This document shows positions 8,469 through 23,031 of a stretch of DNA of 25,396 nucleotides, piece after piece. The DNA comes from a virus. The first letter of the stretch is position 1; each line of letters opens with the position of its first letter. Below the pieces are notes generated by a model. That model made no database searches. It saw only the letters and a program-made list of their open reading frames with translations, and was not told where the DNA came from. The position numbers and the translations under genes were made by a program. The DNA is taken from positions 1 to 25,396 of IMG/VR virus record IMGVR_UViG_3300044612_002010; one strand, given 5' to 3'.

Positions 8469-9207
8469 ATGTCTTCTCCAGACGCTGGGTGCTGATGAAC
8501 TCCCAGCCCCCTTGGGGATAGCCCCCGCGCACATCGCGCAGCAGGGTAACCCCCGAAGTCCACATGGCCTGGGCAGGACCAGCATACCCTTCTTTCTGCT
8601 TGGGGTCAAGATAGCAGCCGGCAACCAGCCCGAAGAGCTTCTCCCGCCCGGTACGCACCGCCACGTCCCAGATGTGGGTATGGCCCATGACGCATGAGCG
8701 GTACTGCTTCTTGAGGAGGGTGGCCGCCGGGTACTCCCCGCCCACGCTCTTGCCCATCACCCCCGTGACGAAGTAGTGGGATGCCCCCACCCCGCCCACT
8801 TGGAACTCCTCAAGGAAGGGCACCACCTCCCAGGTAGCCAGGGCCAGGTCGTCGGTGCTAAGGGTACCCCGTAGCTCGGGGACATTGTCCACCGCCCTAT
8901 CGATGCGGGCCTCGTGGTTCCCCATGAGAAAGACCTTCTTGCCCTTCCACAACCCCAGGGTGAAGAGGGCTTGGTTGGCGGCAGCGAGATCGGCGTTGAT
9001 TGTCCTGCCGTCGAAGCTGCCCTTCCTGCGCCCGTTGCCCGTGAGGGCAGAGCCGTCATAGGAGGAGAGGGAGGGCATATCCGCCAGGTCCCCCAGGCAC
9101 AGCAACATATCCGGCTGGGTATCCTTGAGGTACTTGAGGAGCCACTCGAACCGACGGTTATTGACTCCGGGGCGCGCGTGGGAATCCGGGAGGATGAGGA
9201 CGTTCAC
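8461..9207 (-). CDS. calcineurin-like metallophosphoesterase
   Basis: This 248-residue enzyme has the full metallophosphatase motif set: DSH (D8, H10), GDLAD (D40, D43), GNHEAR (N97, H98) and GHTH (residues 175-178), with another His in ASHYF (H144). These bind two metal ions. The substrate cannot be read from sequence; phage members of this superfamily may act on nucleotides or nucleic acid ends, or process modified groups. It starts in an overlap with the glycosyltransferase fusion gene upstream, so it could be linked to glycan modification or be a general late accessory enzyme. Confidence 0.85.
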   Translation of the reverse strand: MNVLILPDSHARPGVNNRRFEWLLKYLKDTQPDMLLCLGDLADMPSLSSYDGSALTGNGRRKGSFDGRTINADLAAANQALFTLGLWKGKKVFLMGNHEARIDRAVDNVPELRGTLSTDDLALATWEVVPFLEEFQVGGVGASHYFVTGVMGKSVGGEYPAATLLKKQYRSCVMGHTHIWDVAVRTGREKLFGLVAGCYLDPKQKEGYAGPAQAMWTSGVTLLRDVRGGYPQGGWEFISTQRLEKTYG

Positions 9208-11372
9208 TTGAAGATCTCCTCAAGGGTCGGAAGCTCCTGCTTCTTGTCGCCCAGGATGATCTTCCACATGGTGGGGCCCACCCCCTCCCCGTGGCAGTAG
9301 ATGCGCATGCCCATCTCCCGGGCGTGCTCGAAGAAGTACTGGGCGTCCTGCGAGGCGGCAATCAACTCCCCCGTACTCCAGAACTTCTTGCCCGTTTGCC
9401 CGATGGAAATCTCCATGTACTTGGGGCGACCCTGCTCATCCTTGGCCGACTTGTCGATCTGGCCCTCGGGGTAGCAGAAGTCGAAGCCGAAGAGGTGGAA
9501 CTCGCTATACCCCAAGGAGAGGCTCAGGGACATGGTGCGCCACGCAGCACAGGTGCCGCCGTTGACAAGGAGGGAACCCGGCGGGAACACCTCGCTCTTC
9601 AGCAGCGCCTGCGTCATGGCGTGCCAGCCCCACACATTCTTGGTGCGCGCCAGCACATGCTTGGTCACGGAGGGGTCGGACATCGAAGCCACTAGCACCT
9701 TCGTGGTGGGCGGAATCTCTTGGAGGAGATCGGTGCGCTTGATGCCGTGGGTGCTGATGCCATCCACTGGGCGCGGATCCAGCAGCACGAGGTAGTGGGG
9801 GTCGATGCCCCAGCCCAGCACCGTGGGCAGCGAGTGCTTCACCACCGCCACGTCGGCACCCTCCCGCCACATCTTCAGGATCTTGTCCTTCCGCTTGTGG
9901 ATGTCAGGGCCCGCCGACACAATCACCAGCTTGCGCCCATGGGGCCGCGCCTTGGTGACCCACCGGGAGAGCAACTCCATGTTCTCCTTGACGTTGCTGA
10001 TGATGTGGTCCTTGGGCATGCAATCCTGCGCCGTGACCTTGAGGGGCACACCCCCCATGCCCGCCCCCGGAAGATCGGGGAGGCCCTCGCCCACCGCCGC
10101 AATCTGGACGATGCCACCCCCGGACACCTGGTCCTTGCTCTTGTAGACGCGCTTCTCCCGGAGGATGCGGGTGAAGATGGCCTCCACTCCCCTGAACTCG
10201 GCGGCGGGAATCCCACCCTGCGAGTCCGCCACGTAGTAGTCGTCGAAGACAACGACGGGTGCCCGCTTGCATTGCTCCCAATCGTGTGCGATGGTGTCCG
10301 CCGAGTGGCCGCCGTCGAGCCAGACGAATTCGACGCCCGGTACCTCGCGCAATGTTTCCTTTGTATCGCCCCGTGTGAGATGGAACTCGAACTTCTTGCC
10401 CTTCTGCTGCATTGCAGCAGCGAACTCTTGGAGTTTCTGGGTCACTTCCTCAAGGGAGAAGTGCTTCTTGACATTGTGTTCCTTGGCGTCGGTATCCGCT
10501 GACGCTTCCTCGAAGAGGTCATAGCCATGATAGACAACGTGGTCCCGTTTCCCAAAAGCAACCTGCGCCATCTGCAGGGCCCGGTCCCCATTCCATGTGC
10601 CGGTCTCCAGTATGACGCTGGGACCGTAATGCTGGACAAGTGCGAGGAGTTGATCGTAGCGCGTCTTCAGGTTCTGGATGACCTTGGTCTTTCGTGCACC
10701 CTTGAGATGTACGAAGACCTGGTTGAGCGGGCTATGCTCGAAAGCGTCGAGCCCCACGTAGTCGGGATCGACAATGTTGTGGGCTTCAAGCCCGTGCATC
10801 TTGTGCATCTGGAGGACGCGCTCGAAGATAAAGGCGTCGGTCCACTCGGCGTAGTTGAAGATCTCCCCGCTCATGTACATGTCGTACATGTCAGCGATGA
10901 GGGTGCGCCCCTCATTCCCGGCGAAGTAGATGAAGCCGGTCTCCGAGTAGTTGATACCCTTCCGGCCTAGGTGGGTGACATGGCCCTTGCAGATCCCGTG
11001 GAGCCAGTCGAAGGTGAGGGGGGACTTGGTGATGACATCCCCGTCCAGCCATACGAAGGGAGCGGGATCGCGGGCGGCATCGTGGAGGGCAAAGACCTTG
11101 GCACAGAACTTCTTGGCATCCAGGCGGTAGTTGTAACCCTCTGGGGTGTTCCCATCCTTGTCCGCGTGGGCCGCCTTGAATTCGTTGAAACCCTCGACTT
11201 CTTCCAAGCGCTTGACAACAAGGGCCCGGTGGGAGCATGACACCTCCGAGGGATCCATCCCATCCACGTACACCGTAAGGGAGATGTTGGAATCCCACAG
11301 GCGCGTGGAGTCCAGGAAGTTCTTGCCGTAGAGGTCCCAGCCCTTCGGCCCCCAAGAAGTAACGATTCTCAT
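9204..11372 (-). CDS. trifunctional fusion: glycosyltransferase, SAM methyltransferase, DUF115/MptE-like domain
   Basis: This 722-residue protein appears to have three parts. Residues 1-230 look like a GT-A glycosyltransferase: an opening like that of nearby GT8-type sequence, then VWLDGDV with D110-G-D112 as the metal-binding DxD. Residues about 235-430 look like a class I methyltransferase: ILETGTWNGDRAL (254-266), then FVWLDGGHSADT and VVVFDDY, as in Methyltransf_24-type enzymes. Residues about 480-635 match the DUF115/MptE-like Rossmann domain (VIVSAGPDIHKRKDKI, GIDPHYLVLLDPRP, LLVNGGTCAAW, EFHLFGFDF), known from Maf-type flagellin glycosylation proteins. It may modify a host surface glycan or a virion component. 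Confidence 0.78.
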   Translation of the reverse strand: MRIVTSWGPKGWDLYGKNFLDSTRLWDSNISLTVYVDGMDPSEVSCSHRALVVKRLEEVEGFNEFKAAHADKDGNTPEGYNYRLDAKKFCAKVFALHDAARDPAPFVWLDGDVITKSPLTFDWLHGICKGHVTHLGRKGINYSETGFIYFAGNEGRTLIADMYDMYMSGEIFNYAEWTDAFIFERVLQMHKMHGLEAHNIVDPDYVGLDAFEHSPLNQVFVHLKGARKTKVIQNLKTRYDQLLALVQHYGPSVILETGTWNGDRALQMAQVAFGKRDHVVYHGYDLFEEASADTDAKEHNVKKHFSLEEVTQKLQEFAAAMQQKGKKFEFHLTRGDTKETLREVPGVEFVWLDGGHSADTIAHDWEQCKRAPVVVFDDYYVADSQGGIPAAEFRGVEAIFTRILREKRVYKSKDQVSGGGIVQIAAVGEGLPDLPGAGMGGVPLKVTAQDCMPKDHIISNVKENMELLSRWVTKARPHGRKLVIVSAGPDIHKRKDKILKMWREGADVAVVKHSLPTVLGWGIDPHYLVLLDPRPVDGISTHGIKRTDLLQEIPPTTKVLVASMSDPSVTKHVLARTKNVWGWHAMTQALLKSEVFPPGSLLVNGGTCAAWRTMSLSLSLGYSEFHLFGFDFCYPEGQIDKSAKDEQGRPKYMEISIGQTGKKFWSTGELIAASQDAQYFFEHAREMGMRIYCHGEGVGPTMWKIILGDKKQELPTLEEIFK

Positions 11373-12161: not shown

Positions 12162-15062
12162 TCAAGAACTTTCCTTGAGTTCCTGGAGGCGGCGCGTGTA
12201 GTCGGGGCGCACGGTCTTGGGGACATCCTCGATGCGCTGCGGCTTGCGGAATTCAAGGACCTTCTTCTGGATGCCGGTGTTGAAGGACTCGAAGTCCGGG
12301 ACGATGCGATCCCGCAGGGGACGACCCCGGTCGTGGGCGGCAATCTCCCGTCGCAGCCTCTGGGCTTCGACGCGGTAGGAGGGGTCCCCGGTGGACATGG
12401 CCCGCGCCATGTTGGTTGCGATCTTGTCGCTGTAGGACTTGCGGAGGCTATCAAGGCGAGTACCCAGGTCCTTGGTCTCCTCCTTGGCCTCGCGAGCCTC
12501 GGCAATCTTGGTGGGGGTGAAGCCAGTGGCCACCTTGACGAAGTCGAGGTTACCTTGGAGTTCCTTGGCGGGGAGAACTGGCTCCATCTTGCCGGGGGTG
12601 ACGTAGCCCAGTTCACGCATGGTGGCTGCCCGCGCCAGGTTGCGGAAGGCCACGGGCAGGAGGGAGGCCGCCGCCATGAGAGGCATGCCCTTCTGCTGGT
12701 ACTTGTAGGCTTCCTCGGCTCCACCCACCACGGCACCCATGAGCGGACCCATGTTCATGATGTCCAGCGAGGCCATGTTGCTGAGGTTGAGGTCGAGGGC
12801 CGTGCGCTTGGAGATGTCCACGCCCACGGCGCGGAAGGGTCCGTTGAGGACGTAGTCCGCCAACTCGGCGGGGGTACCCATGAAGTTGAGGGCGGGGACC
12901 TCCTTGAAGAGATCCCGCATGGTCTCGCGCAACTGGGCTTGGAGTGCGGTAGGGGTGAGCCCAAGGGATGGACCCACCAGCTTCATCAGCTTGTCGATGA
13001 GGTCCCCGGCGGGGGCGGCAAAGGGTAGTCCCCAGATGCCGGCAGTCATGAAGATGCCCAGCAGGGTGAGGCCAACGACCTTCTTGCCCTCGTCGGTGGA
13101 CATCAGACCCTTGCCACCGTAGTACTCTGCAGCCCGGCGGATGAAGCCCAGCATCTTGAAGGGGAATGTGGCGAACTGGAAGGCAAGGCCGGGGATGAGA
13201 CCGTGCATGTACTGGGCCCGGAAGGGCTTGGACATCGCGAACTGGGTCTCGGAGATGGCGAACTTGGCGGCATCCACCCGGTCCTCTACCGTCTCCCCCA
13301 CGTTCTTGGCGAACTTCTGGATGCGCTGGAAAGCCTTCTCGTTCTTGGCAAGTCGGTAGGCAGCAAGTCCCGTGGCAAGACGGTTGACCTGCTCGGCCAT
13401 GGTGAAGGGCAGGGAGAAGGCTTCAAGGACCTTGCCCATCTTCATGCCCAGCCCGTACATGGACTCAAGCTGGGATTGTGCCAGGAGGGCGGGGGCCTGG
13501 TCGCGCGTGAGAAGGGCTTCCGCGACGCCGCTGCGGAATAGCTCCTTGATCATCTCCTTCTCGTCGGCGGACAGTCCCCGCATCTTGTCCACGTTGAGAA
13601 GCTCTTCGGGCTTCAGGGTCAGCTTGATGCTATCCAGGACTTGGGTGAATGCCAAGGAGAGTTCCTTGGCAGCGTTGCCCGTGCCTCCCACTCCCGCAAG
13701 GAATGGCAGCGCAGTGTGCATCATCTGGGTGAGGTTGACCAGCGCGGAGGAGAGGTTGCCACCCAGCGTGTAGAGGAAGGCCACGCTCTTCAGCTTGGCG
13801 ACCATGGCCTCGTTGCTGTGGAGGTACTGCTCCTGCTTCTCCGCGATGGCCTGCAGCTTCTTGTCCTGGATGCGGGCGATGGCGCTGCGGCGCACACCTT
13901 CCGTAGCCTTGTTGGCAATCCAATCCGTCATCTGGTAGGAGAAGGGCGCGAAGGTGCTGCGGAAGTAGGTGTCGTAGTTGTCAGGGCGCAGCCAGCCGGG
14001 GACGTTCATGCGCCGACGCAGGCGAGGTTGCTTGCGCTTCTCCGCTTCCACGCGCATCCTGCGCAGGACCTCGTCGATGCTGCCAAGCGCATCCTTCTTG
14101 TCCGGTGTCATGATGGCTTGGAAGAGAACGTCGATGCGGTCCATCTCGTTGGCGGACGGCAGGTACAGATCGTAGAGTTCCTTCTCGGCCTGCAAGTCAC
14201 GAAGCCTGACGATGCTGATGCCCTGCTTCTTCAGTTCGGCCATGCGCGCTTCGGCCTTGGCCTTGGAACTCTTGAGGGAGGAGAAGCGATCCAAGGCTCC
14301 CATGCCCTCGGAAAGCACGGAGTCGTAGGCTTCGATGTGCTTCACATCGTTGGCGTCGTAGAACTCCACGGCCCATGCACCCCGGCGCACCTGGGGGAAG
14401 TAGCCCATGCGCCGGGCGTTCTCGATGCTGCGGATGACTGCCGCCGCTGCCTTGTGACGATCCGAGAGAGCCTTGGTCTCCTCGGGATTGCGTCCCTGCT
14501 CCTGGATGTTCTCGATGTCCTGCAGCGACATGTTGGGTGGGTAGCCGTAGGAGGCCTTCACCGCAGTGATGACGTTGTCGTAGATGTCGTTGAGGACTGC
14601 CCGGACCTCCTTGCGCAGGTCGTTGAGCTTCTTGGGGAGCGTGACGATCTCCCCCGTCTTCGATCCGATGTGATCCTCGGTTGCAACGATGGAGGCGCTG
14701 CCATCGGGGTTCTCGTCCGCCAGCTTCTCCTCGGCGTTCTCGACCTCGAAGATGCGCATCATGGCGCGCGAGTCCTTGGAGTCGAGCGCGGCGATCTTGC
14801 GCATGATGGGCTGGTACTGGTGACCCATGCGCGCGCGAAGCTCCTCGCCGTACTTGAGGGCTTGCACGTAGGGACGCAGGGCCGGGAAGCGCGTAGCCAG
14901 GTTGTCGATGCTGATGAACCCACTCAGGTACTTCTGAGTGTTGCTCATCAGCGTCAGCACGGAAGGCTGCAGCTTGTTGGCCTCGATGAGAGACTTCAAC
15001 CCCACCGCCTTGGCGACGGTGTTGTCGATGACCTTGGACTCTACGAAGTTGCATACGGCCAT
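12162..15062 (-). CDS. large internal virion protein, PLxRFG-like C-terminal half of a polyvalent protein
   Basis: This 966-residue protein is helical and alternates charged stretches with hydrophobic segments. The core at about residues 210-700 resembles the C-terminal region of giant phage polyvalent proteins (PLxRFG type): RRMGYFPQVRRGAW, NVPGWLRPDNYDTYFR, FLYTLGGNLSSALVNLTQMM and IPGLAFQFATFPFKMLGF. Hydrophobic, possibly membrane-inserting stretches lie near 425-460, 615-640 and 660-690. It starts 3 bases after the 1696-aa gene. In related phages such domains form one chain with the upstream enzyme domains, so these two genes probably act as a split pair, carried in the particle and inserted into or across the host membrane. 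Family assignment is by pattern only. Confidence 0.68.
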   Translation of the reverse strand: MAVCNFVESKVIDNTVAKAVGLKSLIEANKLQPSVLTLMSNTQKYLSGFISIDNLATRFPALRPYVQALKYGEELRARMGHQYQPIMRKIAALDSKDSRAMMRIFEVENAEEKLADENPDGSASIVATEDHIGSKTGEIVTLPKKLNDLRKEVRAVLNDIYDNVITAVKASYGYPPNMSLQDIENIQEQGRNPEETKALSDRHKAAAAVIRSIENARRMGYFPQVRRGAWAVEFYDANDVKHIEAYDSVLSEGMGALDRFSSLKSSKAKAEARMAELKKQGISIVRLRDLQAEKELYDLYLPSANEMDRIDVLFQAIMTPDKKDALGSIDEVLRRMRVEAEKRKQPRLRRRMNVPGWLRPDNYDTYFRSTFAPFSYQMTDWIANKATEGVRRSAIARIQDKKLQAIAEKQEQYLHSNEAMVAKLKSVAFLYTLGGNLSSALVNLTQMMHTALPFLAGVGGTGNAAKELSLAFTQVLDSIKLTLKPEELLNVDKMRGLSADEKEMIKELFRSGVAEALLTRDQAPALLAQSQLESMYGLGMKMGKVLEAFSLPFTMAEQVNRLATGLAAYRLAKNEKAFQRIQKFAKNVGETVEDRVDAAKFAISETQFAMSKPFRAQYMHGLIPGLAFQFATFPFKMLGFIRRAAEYYGGKGLMSTDEGKKVVGLTLLGIFMTAGIWGLPFAAPAGDLIDKLMKLVGPSLGLTPTALQAQLRETMRDLFKEVPALNFMGTPAELADYVLNGPFRAVGVDISKRTALDLNLSNMASLDIMNMGPLMGAVVGGAEEAYKYQQKGMPLMAAASLLPVAFRNLARAATMRELGYVTPGKMEPVLPAKELQGNLDFVKVATGFTPTKIAEAREAKEETKDLGTRLDSLRKSYSDKIATNMARAMSTGDPSYRVEAQRLRREIAAHDRGRPLRDRIVPDFESFNTGIQKKVLEFRKPQRIEDVPKTVRPDYTRRLQELKESS

Positions 15063-15065
15063 GGA

Positions 15066-18000
15066 TCACCCACAGGAGATGTCGTTCTCGAAGGCTTGGC
15101 CGCCTTCCATCTGGCGGAACTGGGCCTGCTCCACGCGGGAGAGCGCGTTGGTCACTCCTTCGGGGGTTCCTTGCGGGACAAGGAATCGACCTTCGTTCGG
15201 AAGTCTTCCAGCGACTTGCTGTTCCGCAGCATTTGCAGCACCTCGGCTGTAGCCCGCACTCCCACCGAATTCCCCCCCTGCTTGAAAAGGTCTAAGTGCG
15301 TCAGCAAGGCTGCCTCCCCTACTTCCTGGAATTCGGCTGGGGATCGGCTTGTCACCTGTCGCAATAGAAGCTGCGCGATTGTTTGTGTTGGAGTCATCGA
15401 AGATTCCCTTCATGTCTTGGAGCATCTGGAAGTTCTGGCTCACGAGATCTTCCAACGCTCCTCGGAAGGAAGTAGCATGCCCCTCGTCCTCAAGGAAGTT
15501 TTCTATCGAGCCCATGGACGAGATGAAATCGGCGTCGTGGTCGAACACCTCGATGTGGGCAATCTCGTGGATCATGGTAGTGTAGAACGATTGCGTGATG
15601 CCTGCAATCTTTTTTCCCTTGAACGTCATGGGATTGAGAAGGGCGACGGTGAAGGGAACCTTGGCGTTGAGGCCGTAGTAGGTGCTGTCCGTGCCCACGC
15701 CTATGTAGTACTTCTCGGAGAGATCCTTAACGTCTCCCTTGAAGTAGCCATCCTGCACGGTCTTCTTCATCGACATGAAGATCGAGCCAAACTCCCGCAG
15801 GGCACCCAAGACCTTCTCGCGCTTGTAGCCCTTCTTGACCAGCTCTCCCACGGGATCGATGTTGAGGTTGTTGTGGAACAGGACCTCGTCAGTGCTGATG
15901 CCCTGGAGGGGTTCGGACCTTGCGCCCGTGACGAAGTCAACAAGCTTCTGCTTCTTGCCGGCAGCGTCCCTGTACATCACCTCGAAGCTTTGGCCATCCT
16001 TGGCTACTTGGACGAAGAGTTCCGAGGGAAGCGTCATGGCAGTGGGGCGCGCCATGGAGGCCGAGGGGATAAGCGTGGCCTTGCCGTTGATGTCCAGCAC
16101 GTAGGTCTGCGCCATGGTGGCAGCAAGGTCCTGTGTGCCCAAGGCGTTCTTCATCCGGGCGAAGACAGAGTTCAAGGCACTGATGCCGCGCATGACGGTG
16201 TCCCTGAAATTCTCACGCTGGTCGTTGAATGGATACATCTTGTCGTTGGCGGCAACCTTTGACTTGACGTTGAAGATCATATCGGCAGGGTATTGACCTG
16301 GGCTTGATTGCGTCTTGCCAAAAGCAGCGTCAAACTGGTAAGCACCACTGGAAAGTACTTTGTGCGTGGCCAGCTTCATTTGTTTTTCCAGTGGTTCGTT
16401 TCTCCAACCCCAAACTTGGGGATCCAGTATGTACACTTCGATATCACCCCAAGGAAATGAAATATTAGATACCTTGGAGAACCCTCGAATCCTTAGCTGT
16501 TGCCTGCCTACGATAACAGGCTTGTTGTTGAACTTGATGTCAATATCCATGATGTTGCCGGAATCATCGGTAGCCAACCAAGGCTGGGACACGACATTCA
16601 TAATCTTGTTTGTGCTGCCCGAAAGCGTTTCCTCTTCACCGGAATACTTGTTGGTGAACTTGTCGCGCAGCTTGATTGTGACCTTGGTACCATTCTCTTC
16701 CTTGGTGGGAACGGTACGAACCTTGAAGGTGCTCCCGCCGCCCAAGGAATTGACTACCTCCTCCCCGGTGACAGTGACGGTGCTCTTCTTCCCGTCGCGC
16801 ACGGTCTCGATTTCGATCCTGTCGGACATGGTGAAGATGCCCATCTTGGCCTTGCCCATGCCGCCACTGCGCATGGTATTGGGCACATCCTTCTTGGTCC
16901 CCAAGACCGAGAAGAATGCCCTCTCCAGGATGTCCGGGGTCATGCCCACCCCGTTGTCCTTCACCACCATCGTATGGGTGGCATCGTCCCACGTCACATC
17001 GATATTGCCTTTGGAGATCTGGCCCTTGTGGATTGCTTCCTTCACGGCATCGAAGGCGTTCTGCACCATCTCCTTGGCGGCCACGACAGCCGGGGTATTA
17101 CTGTAACCGAAGATCGACAACTGCTTGATGAGTTGTTCCCTGTCGATGCCAAGGGAGACTTCACGCTCCGTGGCACTGCGCATCACACCCGGCTCGTCAT
17201 CCACGAGAGTCAGGTTGTTCAGCTTGTAGGTGTACTTCCTATCGGGCTGGCCCTCGGGGGCAACCACGGCGCGCTCGCCCTCGATGCTCCTGACCTTGAA
17301 CTCGTATCCGTCTGCCGTGCGCACCGTATCCCCAACCTCGATGGCGCGCGACTCCCGGGTCTTCGGAGGCTCCGCCCCGGATTCCGAAAGGATATCCACC
17401 AGGGAACTCCCGCCACCTGCGGGTGCAGTCGTGAGTACGGTGCGCTTGCCTACCTCATTCGGAGGGGAGACCACGCCCTCACTCTCAAGACGATCCAATA
17501 TGGCTTTCGCCTTATCGTACCCCATCTGAAAGTGTCTCTGGATGAACGTAGTACCTGCTTTGCCCTCGCGGCGAACCAGTTCAAGTGCCTTGGCATACTC
17601 ATCTTCCGTAAACTGCGCGGCGGGTGCGGCAGGAGGCTGCGGAGGTTGCTCGGTATCCGTGGTAGTCTGCGACTCACTTCCGTCAACCAGTTCAATTCCG
17701 TTATCGAACAGGATACTGATAAAAGCCTCTGTCCTCTCAAAAGAAGTGGAGGTAATAGGAAGTGCGGCATTGACTTCTTCGTAGGTAAGTCTTCCGGTCT
17801 GCTTGCCCTTTTCAACCAAGGCCCTTTCTTCGGGATTAAGGTCTGCTTCCGTAAGCTGAGATGCCACGGGCGCAGGTGCGGGCTCTTCGGTGGTAGCTGC
17901 AGGAGCAGGCTCTGCCGGAGCCTCGGTGGCTTGCACCGGAAGAACAGTGCGGTACCCTTCCGCGTTGGGGGCGCTGACCACGCCCTCCTGCTCCATGCGC

Positions 18001-20156
18001 TCGATGATGCGCTGCGCGCGCTCGGGTCCAAGCCCAAGGTTGCGACGCAGGGAGGAAATCCCGACGCTGCCCTGCTCGCGAACCAAGGCCACCGCATCGT
18101 TGTAGGCTTCTTGATCAACCTCGGCAGAAGCGGCTGCAACTTGCTCGGGGGTCTGCCTCTGCCTTGAGGGGACGTTGCCGGCCCAAGAGTTCTTGAGGAT
18201 GATGTCGTAAGCCTGCTGGGGGCTCATGGCATCGATTTCGGCAGGCTCGTACCCCATGGCGAAGAGGCGCTGCCGCATCGTGCGGTCAATCTGCAGCGGC
18301 GCGGAGAGCCTCCAGAAGATCTGGCCGCCGGGCCTGGTCTGCACCAAGCCTTCGTTCTCCAGCATCTTGAAGACCTTGGGCACTACCGTGGGATCTTCGA
18401 TGGTCCTGCCGATGGCACCCTCAAGCCACCGCTTCTGCATCTTGGTGTCGGGGCTCTCCTTGCTCAAGGCTTCCATGAGCTTGGGATCGCGCCGGATGCT
18501 GATGGCTTCCTTCTCTGCCTCGGTGGTGAAGCGGAAGAAGGCACCCTTCTGGACTACTTCGCCCTCTGCCTGCAGACGTGCAAGCAGGTCCTTGGTTTCG
18601 TCGGGGGTGACCTCCCCGATGATACGGTTGGCCTGAAGACTCTGGAGGAAAGCAGGATTGAAGAACTGGCTGGAATCCCGGTAGCCGTCTTCGGTGAAGG
18701 GGATGTTGTCCACCACCTGCTTGTAGGTGGTGTCCAAGGCGGTAGGAGCGGCACCCTGCGGAACTGGGGGCGGGGTCTCGTTCATGAAGTCGTAGGTGCC
18801 GATCTCCGGGATGTCCTTGACGATCTCGGGATCTTCCGCCAGACTGAGCTTCAGGTAGCGCTCGAATTCCTGGGGCGACATGTTGACCAGCGCTCCCTCT
18901 TCCTGCTCGGAGAGGTTCTGCCGCATGGCCAGCTTGCGCTTGATCTTGATGTCGACGGGAGCCTTGGCTCCAACGAGCTTCTCGGGGTCGTATTCCTTGG
19001 CGAGGGCGTAGGCCTCGGGGAGACGCACGGCATCCAGGAACTGTGCGCGCTGGGTCTGGATCTTCTGCGTTTCGGCGGCACGCGTCGCCGCATCCTCCTG
19101 CTGGCGCTGCTCGGCAGCCAGGCGCTGCTCTTCCTCTGCCGCTGCCGTGCGTCGCGCCCCGATGGCCCCGGCACCAGCGCCAACCGGGGCGGCACCAATG
19201 CCACCCTTGAGTGCGGCATCGACAACCTTGTTCCACTCGATGCTCTTGTCCGCGAGGATGTTAACGGCAGCTTGGTCGAGAAGTTCCTGTGAGCCCTCGG
19301 TGAGACCCTCGGTGGCGGCAGTCTCCAGGGCACCAGCAAGGGCACCACTCCAGCCCGGCCTGCTCTTGAGGAGCTTGGAGGAGATGAGGTTGGTGAGCCT
19401 GTCCCCCATCTCCACGCCCTGCGTCTTGCGCAGCAGCATCACGGGGGCGATGGAATCAAGGGCAGTCTTCAGGGAGCCCACGGCGAAGGCAACGCCGGGT
19501 CGCATCTCCTGGGTTTCATCGTAGATGTTGGCGAAGGACTCGGGTATGTTCTGGATGCCGGAACCCAGCACCGCGCCCGCAGCCGTACCGATCTGGCGAC
19601 TCACCTGCCGCATGGCCTCGGCGGCTGCAGCTTCCTTGGTGATGGTCTGCCCGGCAGCTTGCGCCGCCGCTTCAATGGCTGCAGCCCTGCTGGCTACCAA
19701 GCCGGAAGCCGCCCTGCCTGCAGCGAAGCGCGTGGCCGCAGCCCCCACGCCAATGCCGGGGATCAGTGCCGTGGCCATGCTGGGAAGCGCTTGGCCGATG
19801 GCTTCCCCACCGTACTCGATGAGAGACCCCAGCCCCTTCACATCCTCGTAGGACATCTGGGCCAGGTAGCCAGACTCCTTGAGCCTGTCCATGCGCTCCT
19901 TGTAGGCCTGCAGGTTGGCGCGCGCGGCGTTGTCGTAGCCCAGCGAGTTCTGGGCCATCGCCGGGAGGACCTCGGAGATGAGACCCTTGGTCTGCTCCCA
20001 GCCAGTGGCCAAGCCTCGGGACAGCGAGTTGGGACCCTCGGGAGTCCTTGAGGGTACCCAAGTGTAGCCATCCCACTCGATGGCATCCGCACCCGGAGTT
20101 CCCTTGAATGGGACGTACTGCTTGCCATCCCACTCGTATTTGGTAGGCTTGTCCAT
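15066..20156 (-). CDS. giant multidomain virion (polyvalent-type) protein: winged helices, sigma1.1-like, GHKL ATPase, HExxH peptidase
   Basis: This 1696-residue protein shows, in order: two short WDG-xx-VP repeats (7-37); Ala/Gly-rich hydrophobic stretches (115-245, 310-335); two possible winged helices (500-545, 570-620); an FtsK-gamma-like winged helix (683-740); a sigma-70 region 1.1-like domain (772-830, with GKQTGRLTYEEVNAALP); a second FtsK-gamma-like domain (851-910); a small beta-barrel-like part (938-988); a GHKL ATPase (1005-1165: N box E1029/N1033/D1036, G1 box DNGVGM at 1067, G2 box GGMGKAKMG at 1098-1106); and a zincin motif HEIAH (1530-1534) with H1540. The tail is Gly/Ser-rich. 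It is flanked by virion genes, starts at TGATG, and is probably packaged and injected. Domain calls are by eye; GHKL and HExxH are firmest. Confidence 0.8.
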   Translation of the reverse strand: MDKPTKYEWDGKQYVPFKGTPGADAIEWDGYTWVPSRTPEGPNSLSRGLATGWEQTKGLISEVLPAMAQNSLGYDNAARANLQAYKERMDRLKESGYLAQMSYEDVKGLGSLIEYGGEAIGQALPSMATALIPGIGVGAAATRFAAGRAASGLVASRAAAIEAAAQAAGQTITKEAAAAEAMRQVSRQIGTAAGAVLGSGIQNIPESFANIYDETQEMRPGVAFAVGSLKTALDSIAPVMLLRKTQGVEMGDRLTNLISSKLLKSRPGWSGALAGALETAATEGLTEGSQELLDQAAVNILADKSIEWNKVVDAALKGGIGAAPVGAGAGAIGARRTAAAEEEQRLAAEQRQQEDAATRAAETQKIQTQRAQFLDAVRLPEAYALAKEYDPEKLVGAKAPVDIKIKRKLAMRQNLSEQEEGALVNMSPQEFERYLKLSLAEDPEIVKDIPEIGTYDFMNETPPPVPQGAAPTALDTTYKQVVDNIPFTEDGYRDSSQFFNPAFLQSLQANRIIGEVTPDETKDLLARLQAEGEVVQKGAFFRFTTEAEKEAISIRRDPKLMEALSKESPDTKMQKRWLEGAIGRTIEDPTVVPKVFKMLENEGLVQTRPGGQIFWRLSAPLQIDRTMRQRLFAMGYEPAEIDAMSPQQAYDIILKNSWAGNVPSRQRQTPEQVAAASAEVDQEAYNDAVALVREQGSVGISSLRRNLGLGPERAQRIIERMEQEGVVSAPNAEGYRTVLPVQATEAPAEPAPAATTEEPAPAPVASQLTEADLNPEERALVEKGKQTGRLTYEEVNAALPITSTSFERTEAFISILFDNGIELVDGSESQTTTDTEQPPQPPAAPAAQFTEDEYAKALELVRREGKAGTTFIQRHFQMGYDKAKAILDRLESEGVVSPPNEVGKRTVLTTAPAGGGSSLVDILSESGAEPPKTRESRAIEVGDTVRTADGYEFKVRSIEGERAVVAPEGQPDRKYTYKLNNLTLVDDEPGVMRSATEREVSLGIDREQLIKQLSIFGYSNTPAVVAAKEMVQNAFDAVKEAIHKGQISKGNIDVTWDDATHTMVVKDNGVGMTPDILERAFFSVLGTKKDVPNTMRSGGMGKAKMGIFTMSDRIEIETVRDGKKSTVTVTGEEVVNSLGGGSTFKVRTVPTKEENGTKVTIKLRDKFTNKYSGEEETLSGSTNKIMNVVSQPWLATDDSGNIMDIDIKFNNKPVIVGRQQLRIRGFSKVSNISFPWGDIEVYILDPQVWGWRNEPLEKQMKLATHKVLSSGAYQFDAAFGKTQSSPGQYPADMIFNVKSKVAANDKMYPFNDQRENFRDTVMRGISALNSVFARMKNALGTQDLAATMAQTYVLDINGKATLIPSASMARPTAMTLPSELFVQVAKDGQSFEVMYRDAAGKKQKLVDFVTGARSEPLQGISTDEVLFHNNLNIDPVGELVKKGYKREKVLGALREFGSIFMSMKKTVQDGYFKGDVKDLSEKYYIGVGTDSTYYGLNAKVPFTVALLNPMTFKGKKIAGITQSFYTTMIHEIAHIEVFDHDADFISSMGSIENFLEDEGHATSFRGALEDLVSQNFQMLQDMKGIFDDSNTNNRAASIATGDKPIPSRIPGSRGGSLADALRPFQAGGEFGGSAGYSRGAANAAEQQVAGRLPNEGRFLVPQGTPEGVTNALSRVEQAQFRQMEGGQAFENDISCG
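15152..15397 (-). CDS. possible overprinted small gene inside the end of the giant gene
   Basis: An 81-residue reading frame starts at ATG 15397, with AAGGGA 7 bases upstream, and lies wholly inside the 3' end of the giant gene in the +1 frame. Its product looks like a normal helical protein: TIAQLLLRQVTSRSPAEFQE, VGEAALLTHLDLFKQGG, GVRATAEVLQMLRNSKSLED. The giant's frame over the same bases is Gly/Ser-rich and disordered, which is common when one frame is constrained by another. A run of seven C (15272-15278 on the plus strand) lies within it, so a frameshift or sequencing slip is an alternative explanation. Confidence 0.45.
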   Translation of the reverse strand: MTPTQTIAQLLLRQVTSRSPAEFQEVGEAALLTHLDLFKQGGNSVGVRATAEVLQMLRNSKSLEDFRTKVDSLSRKEPPKE

Positions 20157-22068: not shown

Positions 22069-23031
22069 TTATCCCAAGATTCCCTTGACGAAGTTCCATG
22101 CCCCGCTGACGGCATTGCCAAGAGGATTGCTGTAGCTAGAACCCGCAGGAGTGTTGGACCCGAAGAGGTTGTAGATGCCAGCACCCGCAAGACCCAAGCC
22201 CGCAGCCGTGGCAAGAGGGCTTGATTGCGGGGTGATGGTCTGGCCCACCTGCGTGGTAGTACCCTGTGGAGCTACACCCCGGAAGATGCCACCGAGGCGT
22301 TCGATCTGCCCGAGGTCGAAGCCCTGCCCCCGCAGGTACTCCTGGTACGCAAGGTCCCGCTGCTGCTGCTCCAACTGGCGCGGCAAGGCCTGGCTCTTGA
22401 GGATGGCATCAAGGCCGCCCAGACCCAACTGCTGGGCCTGCTGGCCCATGGCCGCGTAGAGGGGGGAAGCCGCCAACTCGCGCTGGGCCTCCTGCTGACG
22501 CAGCCCAGTGCCCGCCGTGAAGGCTCGCTCCAACCCCGCCTGCTGGATATCCGTGAGGCGCTGGCCCAAGTTGCGCTCCGCCTCTGCCTCCTGCACCCCG
22601 TAGCGCGCCCCACCAAAGGCACCCTGCCTGCTGGCTTGGTAGCCCATCTGAGGGAGCATCTTCCCGTAGTCGCGCACCGCCTCACGCTTGGCGATGTCGG
22701 TGACGTACTGCGTGTAGGGGTTCATGTACTGGGAGTAGTCGGTATCCGCTACCCCGCGCGTGGCCGCCCCAAGGGAACCAAAGCCGGCGGCAAGCCCCGG
22801 CATATAGGATCCAGCGGCAGCCGGAATATCCCCAATAGCCTGCTGCTCCGTGGTGCTGAGAGGGGCAACGCGCTGGGCGGGGTCGTAGTATTCGTATTCT
22901 GGCGCGGCCTCGACTGCCCCTTCCAGGAGCTTGCGCTGGATATTGGCCGCCCAATCGGGAAGCTGCGCCGACGTGATGGTCGTCGTTGGGGTAGATAGGG
23001 TCGAACCCTGAAACAAGTCCTTGAACGCCAT
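22069..23031 (-). CDS. internal virion / ejection-type structural protein
   Basis: This encodes 320 residues from ATG 23031, with AGGA upstream in a 37-base gap. The protein has a Gln/Ala/Arg-rich helical middle. YMNPYTQYVTDIAKREAVRD followed by GYQASRQGAFGGARYGVQEA, then AERNLGQRLTDIQQAGLERA, is a pattern found in virion or injection proteins of many podovirus-like phages. The C-terminal 60 residues are Gly/Ala/Ser-rich with a short hydrophobic stretch (ATAAGLGLAGAGIYNLFG). No enzymatic motif is seen. The likely role is in the tail or internal core. Confidence 0.65.
   Translation of the reverse strand: MAFKDLFQGSTLSTPTTTITSAQLPDWAANIQRKLLEGAVEAAPEYEYYDPAQRVAPLSTTEQQAIGDIPAAAGSYMPGLAAGFGSLGAATRGVADTDYSQYMNPYTQYVTDIAKREAVRDYGKMLPQMGYQASRQGAFGGARYGVQEAEAERNLGQRLTDIQQAGLERAFTAGTGLRQQEAQRELAASPLYAAMGQQAQQLGLGGLDAILKSQALPRQLEQQQRDLAYQEYLRGQGFDLGQIERLGGIFRGVAPQGTTTQVGQTITPQSSPLATAAGLGLAGAGIYNLFGSNTPAGSSYSNPLGNAVSGAWNFVKGILG

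What the first reader, a model, noticed from the sequence alone, without database searches (positions are those of the whole stretch)
17427..18110. Two FtsK-gamma-like winged helices bracket the sigma1.1-like domain
Residues 683-740 (EAYNDAVALVREQGSVGISS, RAQRIIERMEQEGVVSAPN) and 851-910 (DEYAKALELVRREGKAGTTF, IQRHFQMGYDKAKAILDRLE, SEGVVSPPNEVGKRTVL) follow the FtsK gamma pattern: 'A...V...GKAS.S.LQR...IGY.RA..I...LE.EGVV.PPN...R.VL'. In FtsK this domain reads KOPS sites and activates XerD. Two copies in one phage protein could target host KOPS, interfere with chromosome segregation, or position the protein on DNA. One GGGNAGGG-type site is visible near 13405 in the window.
Basis: partly seen in the sequence, partly recalled or inferred. 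Interest (0 to 1): 0.87.

Follow-up and report, generated by a model that had tools for sequence, protein, structure and literature searches.

The report
Swappable FtsK-like domains in phage protein
A large phage protein, probably injected into the host cell with the viral DNA, carries two copies of the DNA-binding tip of the bacterial chromosome pump FtsK; these tips are recent, swappable inserts whose sequence-reading residues have changed, so they more likely tether the protein to DNA than read the host's chromosome signposts.

Summary
Observation confirmed. The 1696-aa protein (window 15066-20156, minus strand) has two FtsK_gamma domains (59.5 and 65.2 bits, cut-off 30.6) on either side of a sigma-70 region-1.1-like domain (43 bits, cut-off 22.5), followed by a GHKL ATPase and a zincin-like HEIAH motif. 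It lies in a podovirus ejection-gene block. Its N-terminus, or that of its orthologs, matches a virion structural family and the N4-type virion RNA polymerase family. It is therefore best read as a virion-delivered 'polyvalent' protein, a class in which FtsK wHTH domains are already reported.

The KOPS/segregation reading is not supported. At KOPS-reading residues N1296/R1300/E1303 the copies have E/R/E and D/A/D; N1296 is kept in 38 of 38 alphaproteobacterial FtsKs examined. KOPS octamers are not enriched in the window (11 seen, 11.9 expected).

New here: the gammas are optional cassettes. Gamma2 is a clean in-frame 201-bp insertion, flanked by an 8-bp repeat, absent from all five relatives covering the site, one 98.5% identical. 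Gamma1 diverges to 51% in L004 between 96-98% identical flanks and is absent from three more distant orthologs. The sigma1.1-like domain is in all.

Most likely role: non-KOPS dsDNA tethering. No binding data exist.

The parts
15066..20156 (-). 1696-aa polyvalent protein gene that carries the two FtsK gamma domains
   Evidence: ORF; Pfam/PHROG/NCBIfam hits
19683..20048 (-). N-terminal region (res 37-158) matching phrog_6958 'virion structural protein'; orthologs L079 and L081 also match phrog_2206 'virion RNA polymerase' in their N-terminal region
18522..18734 (-). probable winged helix 1 (about res 475-545)
   Evidence: AlphaFold helices/strands with pLDDT about 70-76 in the core; sub-threshold DUF5817_CT / SelB-wing hits
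18303..18452 (-). probable winged helix 2 (about res 569-618)
   Evidence: H-H-strand-strand pattern in low-confidence model; sub-threshold GntR/Rrf2 hits
17940..18116 (-). FtsK gamma domain 1 (about res 681-740); KOPS triad N/R/E reads E/R/E
   Evidence: 59.5 bits vs cut-off 30.6; residue table
17649..17822 (-). sigma-70 region 1.1-like domain (res 779-836), in all full-length relatives
   Evidence: 43 bits vs 22.5; L004, L079, L080, L081 also over cut-off
17430..17603 (-). FtsK gamma domain 2 (res 852-909); KOPS triad N/R/E reads D/A/D
   Evidence: 65.2 bits; 56-61% identity to alphaproteobacterial FtsK C-termini
17428..17628 (-). 201-bp in-frame segment holding gamma2, present here and absent from L003, L004 and the more distant orthologs
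17620..17627 (-). 8-bp direct repeat GCACCCGC, inner side of the upstream junction of the gamma2 segment
17419..17426 (-). 8-bp direct repeat GCACCCGC, downstream junction of the gamma2 segment
16671..17129 (-). GHKL (HSP90/MutL/gyrase-type) ATPase domain, with N-box KEMVQNAFDA, DNGxGM and GGxGxAK motifs
   Evidence: PF13589/PF02518 over cut-off; motifs kept in L004, L014, L015
15555..15569 (-). zincin-like metallopeptidase motif HEIAH
   Evidence: H, E, H invariant in 4 distant proteins; weak WLM hit
15069..15149 (-). conserved C-terminal tail ending in DISCG
   Evidence: shared by L079, L080, L081, even though L079 has a different effector region
12162..15062 (-). 966-aa downstream gene; its C-terminal part matches large polyvalent/DarB-type phage proteins
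   Evidence: phrog_11358 E 5e-36, phrog_10089 DarB-like
22069..23031 (-). DNA ejection protein (phrog_4287) in the same block
   Evidence: homologs in syntenic place in L014 and L017
24276..25394 (-). podovirus tail 'stabilization'-type virion protein (phrog_3287), upstream end of the block

Best explanation
The 1696-aa protein is a virion-packaged, ejected polyvalent protein of a podovirus whose host is probably an alphaproteobacterium. A constant N-terminus (packaging/ejection) and a constant C-terminal tail bracket an effector region (here a GHKL ATPase plus a zincin-like peptidase). Between them lies an Ala/Pro-linker region that accepts small DNA-binding cassettes. The two FtsK gamma domains are such cassettes, taken from alphaproteobacterial-type FtsK, directly or through other phages. 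Most likely they tether the ejected protein to double-stranded DNA (incoming phage genome or host chromosome) with changed or relaxed sequence preference, and do not serve as KOPS readers. The sigma1.1-like domain is the fixed member of the array. Shown: domain identity, genomic context, cassette gain/loss and exchange, altered reading residues. Inferred: virion location, ejection, DNA tethering, host group.
For: Domain identity. Virion link: N-terminus matches phrog_6958 and, in orthologs, phrog_2206 virion RNA polymerase; gene order tail stabilization protein - ejection protein - lytic-type protein - polyvalent protein; L014 has the same order of ejection protein and polyvalent protein, and phage DSL-LC04 has the homologous stabilization and ejection genes in the same order. 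Active-site motifs of GHKL and zincin kept in distant relatives. Cassette behaviour: 201-bp in-frame gamma2 insertion flanked by GCACCCGC, absent in 5 of 5 relatives; gamma1 51% identical to L004 between 96% (hinge) and 98% (sigma1.1) flanks, and absent in L079-L081. Origin: gamma2 56-61% identical to alphaproteobacterial FtsKs; all three phage gammas fall among them in a tree of few columns. Reading residues changed. Polyvalent precedent with FtsK wHTH: PMC5512222.
Against: No DNA-binding or virion proteomics data. The phage gammas are less positively charged than the FtsK median (-2, 0, -3 vs +1), which weakens a DNA-binding claim. AlphaFold confidence for the whole array is low (mean pLDDT 56, pTM 0.25) and the GHKL/zincin model failed (pLDDT 36). 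The host group rests on similarity of a mobile domain and a 33% DNA polymerase match to a Caulobacter phage.
Confidence: 0.55

Rival explanations
1. KOPS targeting: the gamma copies bind host KOPS sites and bring the ejected effector to the host chromosome or the division-site FtsK/Xer machinery, disturbing segregation.
For: True FtsK gamma homologs; gamma1 keeps R1300, E1303 and E1306; GGGCAGGG is locally over-represented on one strand of relative G002 (6 vs 1.9 expected).
Against: N1296 replaced in all three phage copies, R1300 lost in gamma2, E1321 lost in all. Window KOPS at chance; GGGCAGGG ranks only in the top 17% of octamers in the window and at 69% in G002 coding strands, while its complement is at 0.8% in G002; sites are scattered. 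Domains missing in close relatives.
Confidence: 0.1
2. Own-genome reader: the gammas recognise a phage-encoded sequence, so the protein stays on the incoming phage DNA (protection, first transcription with the sigma1.1-like domain).
For: Rapid cassette turnover in the DNA-reading part and different reading residues in each copy and allele; the sigma1.1-like domain is retained in all; small-terminase fusion of FtsK gamma in phages Sam46/Sam112 suggests phage-DNA use (PMC8190038).
Against: No enriched candidate octamer shared by the window and G002 stood out; the window is an incomplete genome of 25 kb, so power is low.
Confidence: 0.2
3. Protein-interaction decoy: the gammas no longer bind DNA and act as protein-binding modules (for example on host FtsK, XerD or RNA polymerase).
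For: Lower net charge; altered reading positions; the sigma1.1 family is known for interactions within RNA polymerase (general knowledge).
Against: E1321, near the C-terminal strand that I recall as part of the XerD contact, is lost. Fold and several helix residues (G1294, A1298, E1306, R1320) are kept. Other phage gammas sit on DNA-binding or recombination proteins.
Confidence: 0.15

Closest known systems
FtsK/SpoIIIE gamma domain (Pfam PF09397; structures 2VE8/2VE9, 2J5O/2J5P)
   Same: Fold and sequence family, both copies well over cut-off; closest cellular relatives are alphaproteobacterial FtsK C-termini.
   Different: No translocase motor; KOPS-reading residues altered; embedded in Ala/Pro linkers of a large phage protein, two copies.
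Polyvalent proteins of phages and conjugative elements (Iyer et al. 2017, PMC5512222)
   Same: Huge multidomain protein, zincin MPTase-like motif, DNA-binding domains including FtsK wHTH; neighbouring gene resembles DarB-type proteins; L014 relative carries LPD39.
   Different: The text search of that paper found no HSP90/histidine-kinase or sigma terms, so two gammas plus a sigma1.1-like domain plus GHKL may be an unlisted architecture (not exhaustively checked); cassette gain/loss between near-identical phages.
Rhodobacter phages RcMamaDuck/RcDormio 442-aa protein
   Same: Two FtsK gamma domains joined by an Ala/Pro linker, in an alphaproteobacterial phage; one copy has degenerate reading residues (G/K/A), the other keeps N/R/E.
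   Different: Fused to a GapR-like DNA-binding domain, in an AAA-ATPase/nuclease neighbourhood; not a polyvalent virion protein.
Sam46/Sam112 small terminase with N-terminal FtsK gamma (PMC8190038)
   Same: FtsK gamma re-used as a DNA-binding module by a phage.
   Different: Packaging protein; that paper reports conserved DNA-binding residues.

Membership tests
FtsK gamma domain (PF09397) | Profile score over the curated cut-off | tested here: met
   59.5 and 65.2 bits vs 30.6
FtsK gamma domain (PF09397) | Winged-helix fold like 2VE8/2VE9 | tested here: met
   Foldseek TM by target 0.8-0.9 on the gamma part of a low-confidence model
KOPS-reading FtsK gamma | KOPS residues N1296, R1300, E1303 (E1306) | tested here: not met
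   E/R/E/E, D/A/D/E and K/R/E/E vs N in 38/38 FtsKs
KOPS-reading FtsK gamma | Binds GGGNAGGG | not testable with these tools
   needs EMSA/SPR
FtsK/SpoIIIE DNA translocase | RecA-type motor domain with Walker motifs next to gamma | tested here: not met
   no FtsK_SpoIIIE motor hit in the protein
Phage-type polyvalent protein (Iyer 2017) | Several domains of disparate activity in one polypeptide, incl. MPTase | tested here: met
   gamma, sigma1.1-like, GHKL, HEIAH motif; MPTase by motif only, WLM below cut-off
Phage-type polyvalent protein (Iyer 2017) | Delivered into the host with phage DNA | not testable with these tools
   only indirect: ejection block and virion-family N-terminus
Sigma-70 region 1.1 (PF03979) | Profile score over cut-off | tested here: met
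   43 bits vs 22.5; orthologs 24.6-54.3 bits
Sigma factor | Regions 2-4 (promoter binding, core binding) | tested here: not met
   no Sigma70_r2/r3/r4 hit

The most novel reading that the evidence does not exclude
The linker region of this ejected protein family is a polymorphic DNA-targeting head. FtsK-derived and other small modules are inserted, exchanged and re-specified at the level of near-identical phages, retargeting a constant, virion-delivered effector machine to different DNA sequences or host factors, in the way that polymorphic toxins swap modules.
Probability: 0.2. Interest if true: 0.75.

Novelty: new variant of a known kind. Interest (0 to 1): 0.47.

Why it matters
It gives a natural, near-isogenic comparison (L003 without gamma2, the window with it, 98.5% identical elsewhere) for asking what a captured FtsK gamma domain does for a phage, and what the unexplained 'FtsK-like' genes of many phages are for. 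It also shows an ejected polyvalent protein exchanging small DNA-binding modules, and in one ortholog its effector region, between constant ends. That would make early-infection targeting testable.

Tried and rejected
KOPS enrichment: Markov and synonymous-codon shuffles of the window and of G002 gave no consistent signal; GGGCAGGG on one strand of G002 looked raised, but many motifs and orders were tried and the sites are scattered. 'Gamma2 is a duplicate of gamma1': rejected, 42% identity to each other against 56-61% of gamma2 to FtsK. First FtsK survey forced N1296 by its own regular expression and was redone without that bias. Donor of gamma2 in viral contigs: none found; for gamma1 only a phage RdgC-like protein at 49%. 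AlphaFold of GHKL/zincin failed for lack of sequences and was not used. Assembly chimera for gamma2: judged unlikely, since the insertion is in frame at both ends and gamma2 is diverged from any FtsK found. The tree of gamma domains has too few columns to date or polarise captures; only the nesting among alphaproteobacterial FtsKs is used.

Full report
What is there. The minus-strand ORF 15066-20156 encodes 1696 residues. Residues 683-910 map exactly to the coordinates given. Pfam finds FtsK_gamma twice, at window 17940-18116 (59.5 bits) and 17430-17603 (65.2 bits), cut-off 30.6. Between them lies a Sigma70_r1_1 match (43 bits, cut-off 22.5), and behind them a GHKL ATPase over cut-off and a HEIAH zincin motif with a sub-threshold WLM hit. 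The invariant letters of the ATPase boxes and of HExxH are kept in L004, L014 and L015, down to 23-29% identity, so both sites look functional. Each gamma copy alone finds FtsK gamma as its best solved structure. An AlphaFold model of residues 460-925 is poor overall (pLDDT 56, pTM 0.25), but its gamma part matches KOPS-bound 2VE9 (TM by target 0.91). Two further winged helices probably precede gamma1.

Where it sits. Upstream genes encode a podovirus tail stabilization-type protein (phrog_3287), a DNA ejection protein (phrog_4287) and a lytic-type protein; downstream lies a 966-aa gene with similarity to DarB-type proteins. In L014 the ejection protein precedes a 2994-aa protein with the same GHKL/zincin part and LPD39. 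The N-terminus matches phrog_6958 virion structural protein, and orthologs also match the N-terminal part of the phrog_2206 virion RNA polymerase profile. From this I infer a packaged, ejected polyvalent protein. FtsK wHTH domains in such proteins are known but rare (PMC5512222).

Cassettes. L003 is 98.5% identical but lacks gamma2 exactly: the window has 201 extra in-frame bases at 17428-17628, with GCACCCGC at both junctions. L004 lacks it too, with the same junction. In L004 gamma1 is 51% identical, while the hinge before it is 96% and the sigma1.1-like domain after it 98% identical, so gamma1 and its linker were exchanged or diverged as a unit. Three more distant full-length orthologs (L079, L080, L081) keep the N-terminus, the two winged helices, the sigma1.1-like domain (all over cut-off) and a DISCG tail, but have no gamma; no FtsK gamma was found in their contigs. 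L081 has another insert between sigma1.1 and GHKL. L079 lacks GHKL/zincin and has an HSHP...S..D motif with a sub-threshold Prok-JAB hit. By parsimony gamma2 was gained in the window lineage; loss in the relatives is less likely but not excluded.

Origin and reading residues. Gamma2 is 56-61% identical to FtsK C-termini of eight alphaproteobacterial genomes and only 42% to gamma1, so it was acquired separately. In a tree with few columns all three phage gammas fall among alphaproteobacterial FtsKs. In 38 such FtsKs N1296, A1299, E1306 and E1321 are invariant and R1300 is kept in 32. At 1296/1299/1306/1321, gamma1 has E/Q/E/T with R at 1300; gamma2 D/K/E/T with A at 1300; L004 gamma1 K/N/E/K with R at 1300. 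N1296, R1300, E1303 and E1306 are the experimentally named KOPS residues (PMC2533119; PMC2680272). The changes are as expected if KOPS reading was lost or re-specified.

KOPS counts. GGGNAGGG occurs 11 times in the window, 11.9 +/- 3.4 expected. Synonymous shuffles put GGGCAGGG in the top 17% of octamers of the window, not among the outliers; in G002 its complement is raised (0.8%), but the sites are scattered. The host is unknown, so host KOPS were not counted.

Other phages. FtsK gamma occurs in 383 of 50,697 phage records at E <= 1e-3, often on recombination-type proteins. Rhodobacter phages RcMamaDuck and RcDormio carry two gammas, with a GapR-like domain. A double gamma is therefore not unique; a gamma pair around a sigma1.1-like domain was seen only here.

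Reading. The most likely role of the gammas is to tether an ejected effector protein to DNA without KOPS specificity (confidence 0.55). Own-genome reading, protein decoy and true KOPS targeting follow in that order.

Noticed in passing
L079 5159-9280: Ortholog with the same N-terminus and DISCG tail but without GHKL/zincin; it has a JAMM-like HSHPDNTSFSKGD motif (Prok-JAB E 0.069, below cut-off): whole effector region exchanged between constant ends.
   Followed up: partly
L020 5671-6996 and L043 1171-2496: Rhodobacter phage 442-aa protein with two FtsK gamma domains plus a GapR-like DNA-binding domain (shown by Pfam for L020), annotated hypothetical.
   Followed up: partly
L084 2852-4180; L039 460-1680; L041 427-1692: FtsK gamma at the C-terminus of phage RdgC/recombination-type proteins (annotated so for L039 and L041; L084 by resemblance only).
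   Followed up: no
L014 4161-13145 vs window 12162-20156: A single 2994-aa polypeptide in L014/L016 has the GHKL/zincin part and a long C-terminal part with LPD39, where the window has two adjacent genes (1696 and 966 aa).
   Followed up: partly
window 9204-11372: 722-aa protein with MptE-like (E 3e-15) and Methyltransf_24 domains, beside a 455-aa protein of phrog_28018; possibly surface or sugar modification genes in the late block.
   Followed up: no
window 17603-17615 and 17846-17858: The gamma2 and sigma1.1-like domains start with nearly the same 13 bases (12 of 13; identical over CAGTTTACGGAA in L003/L004), a possible shared cassette edge.
   Followed up: partly
window 13641-16262 (+): 873-aa TTG-start antisense ORF opposite the polyvalent and 966-aa genes; looks like a by-product of high GC coding, not a gene.
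   Followed up: no
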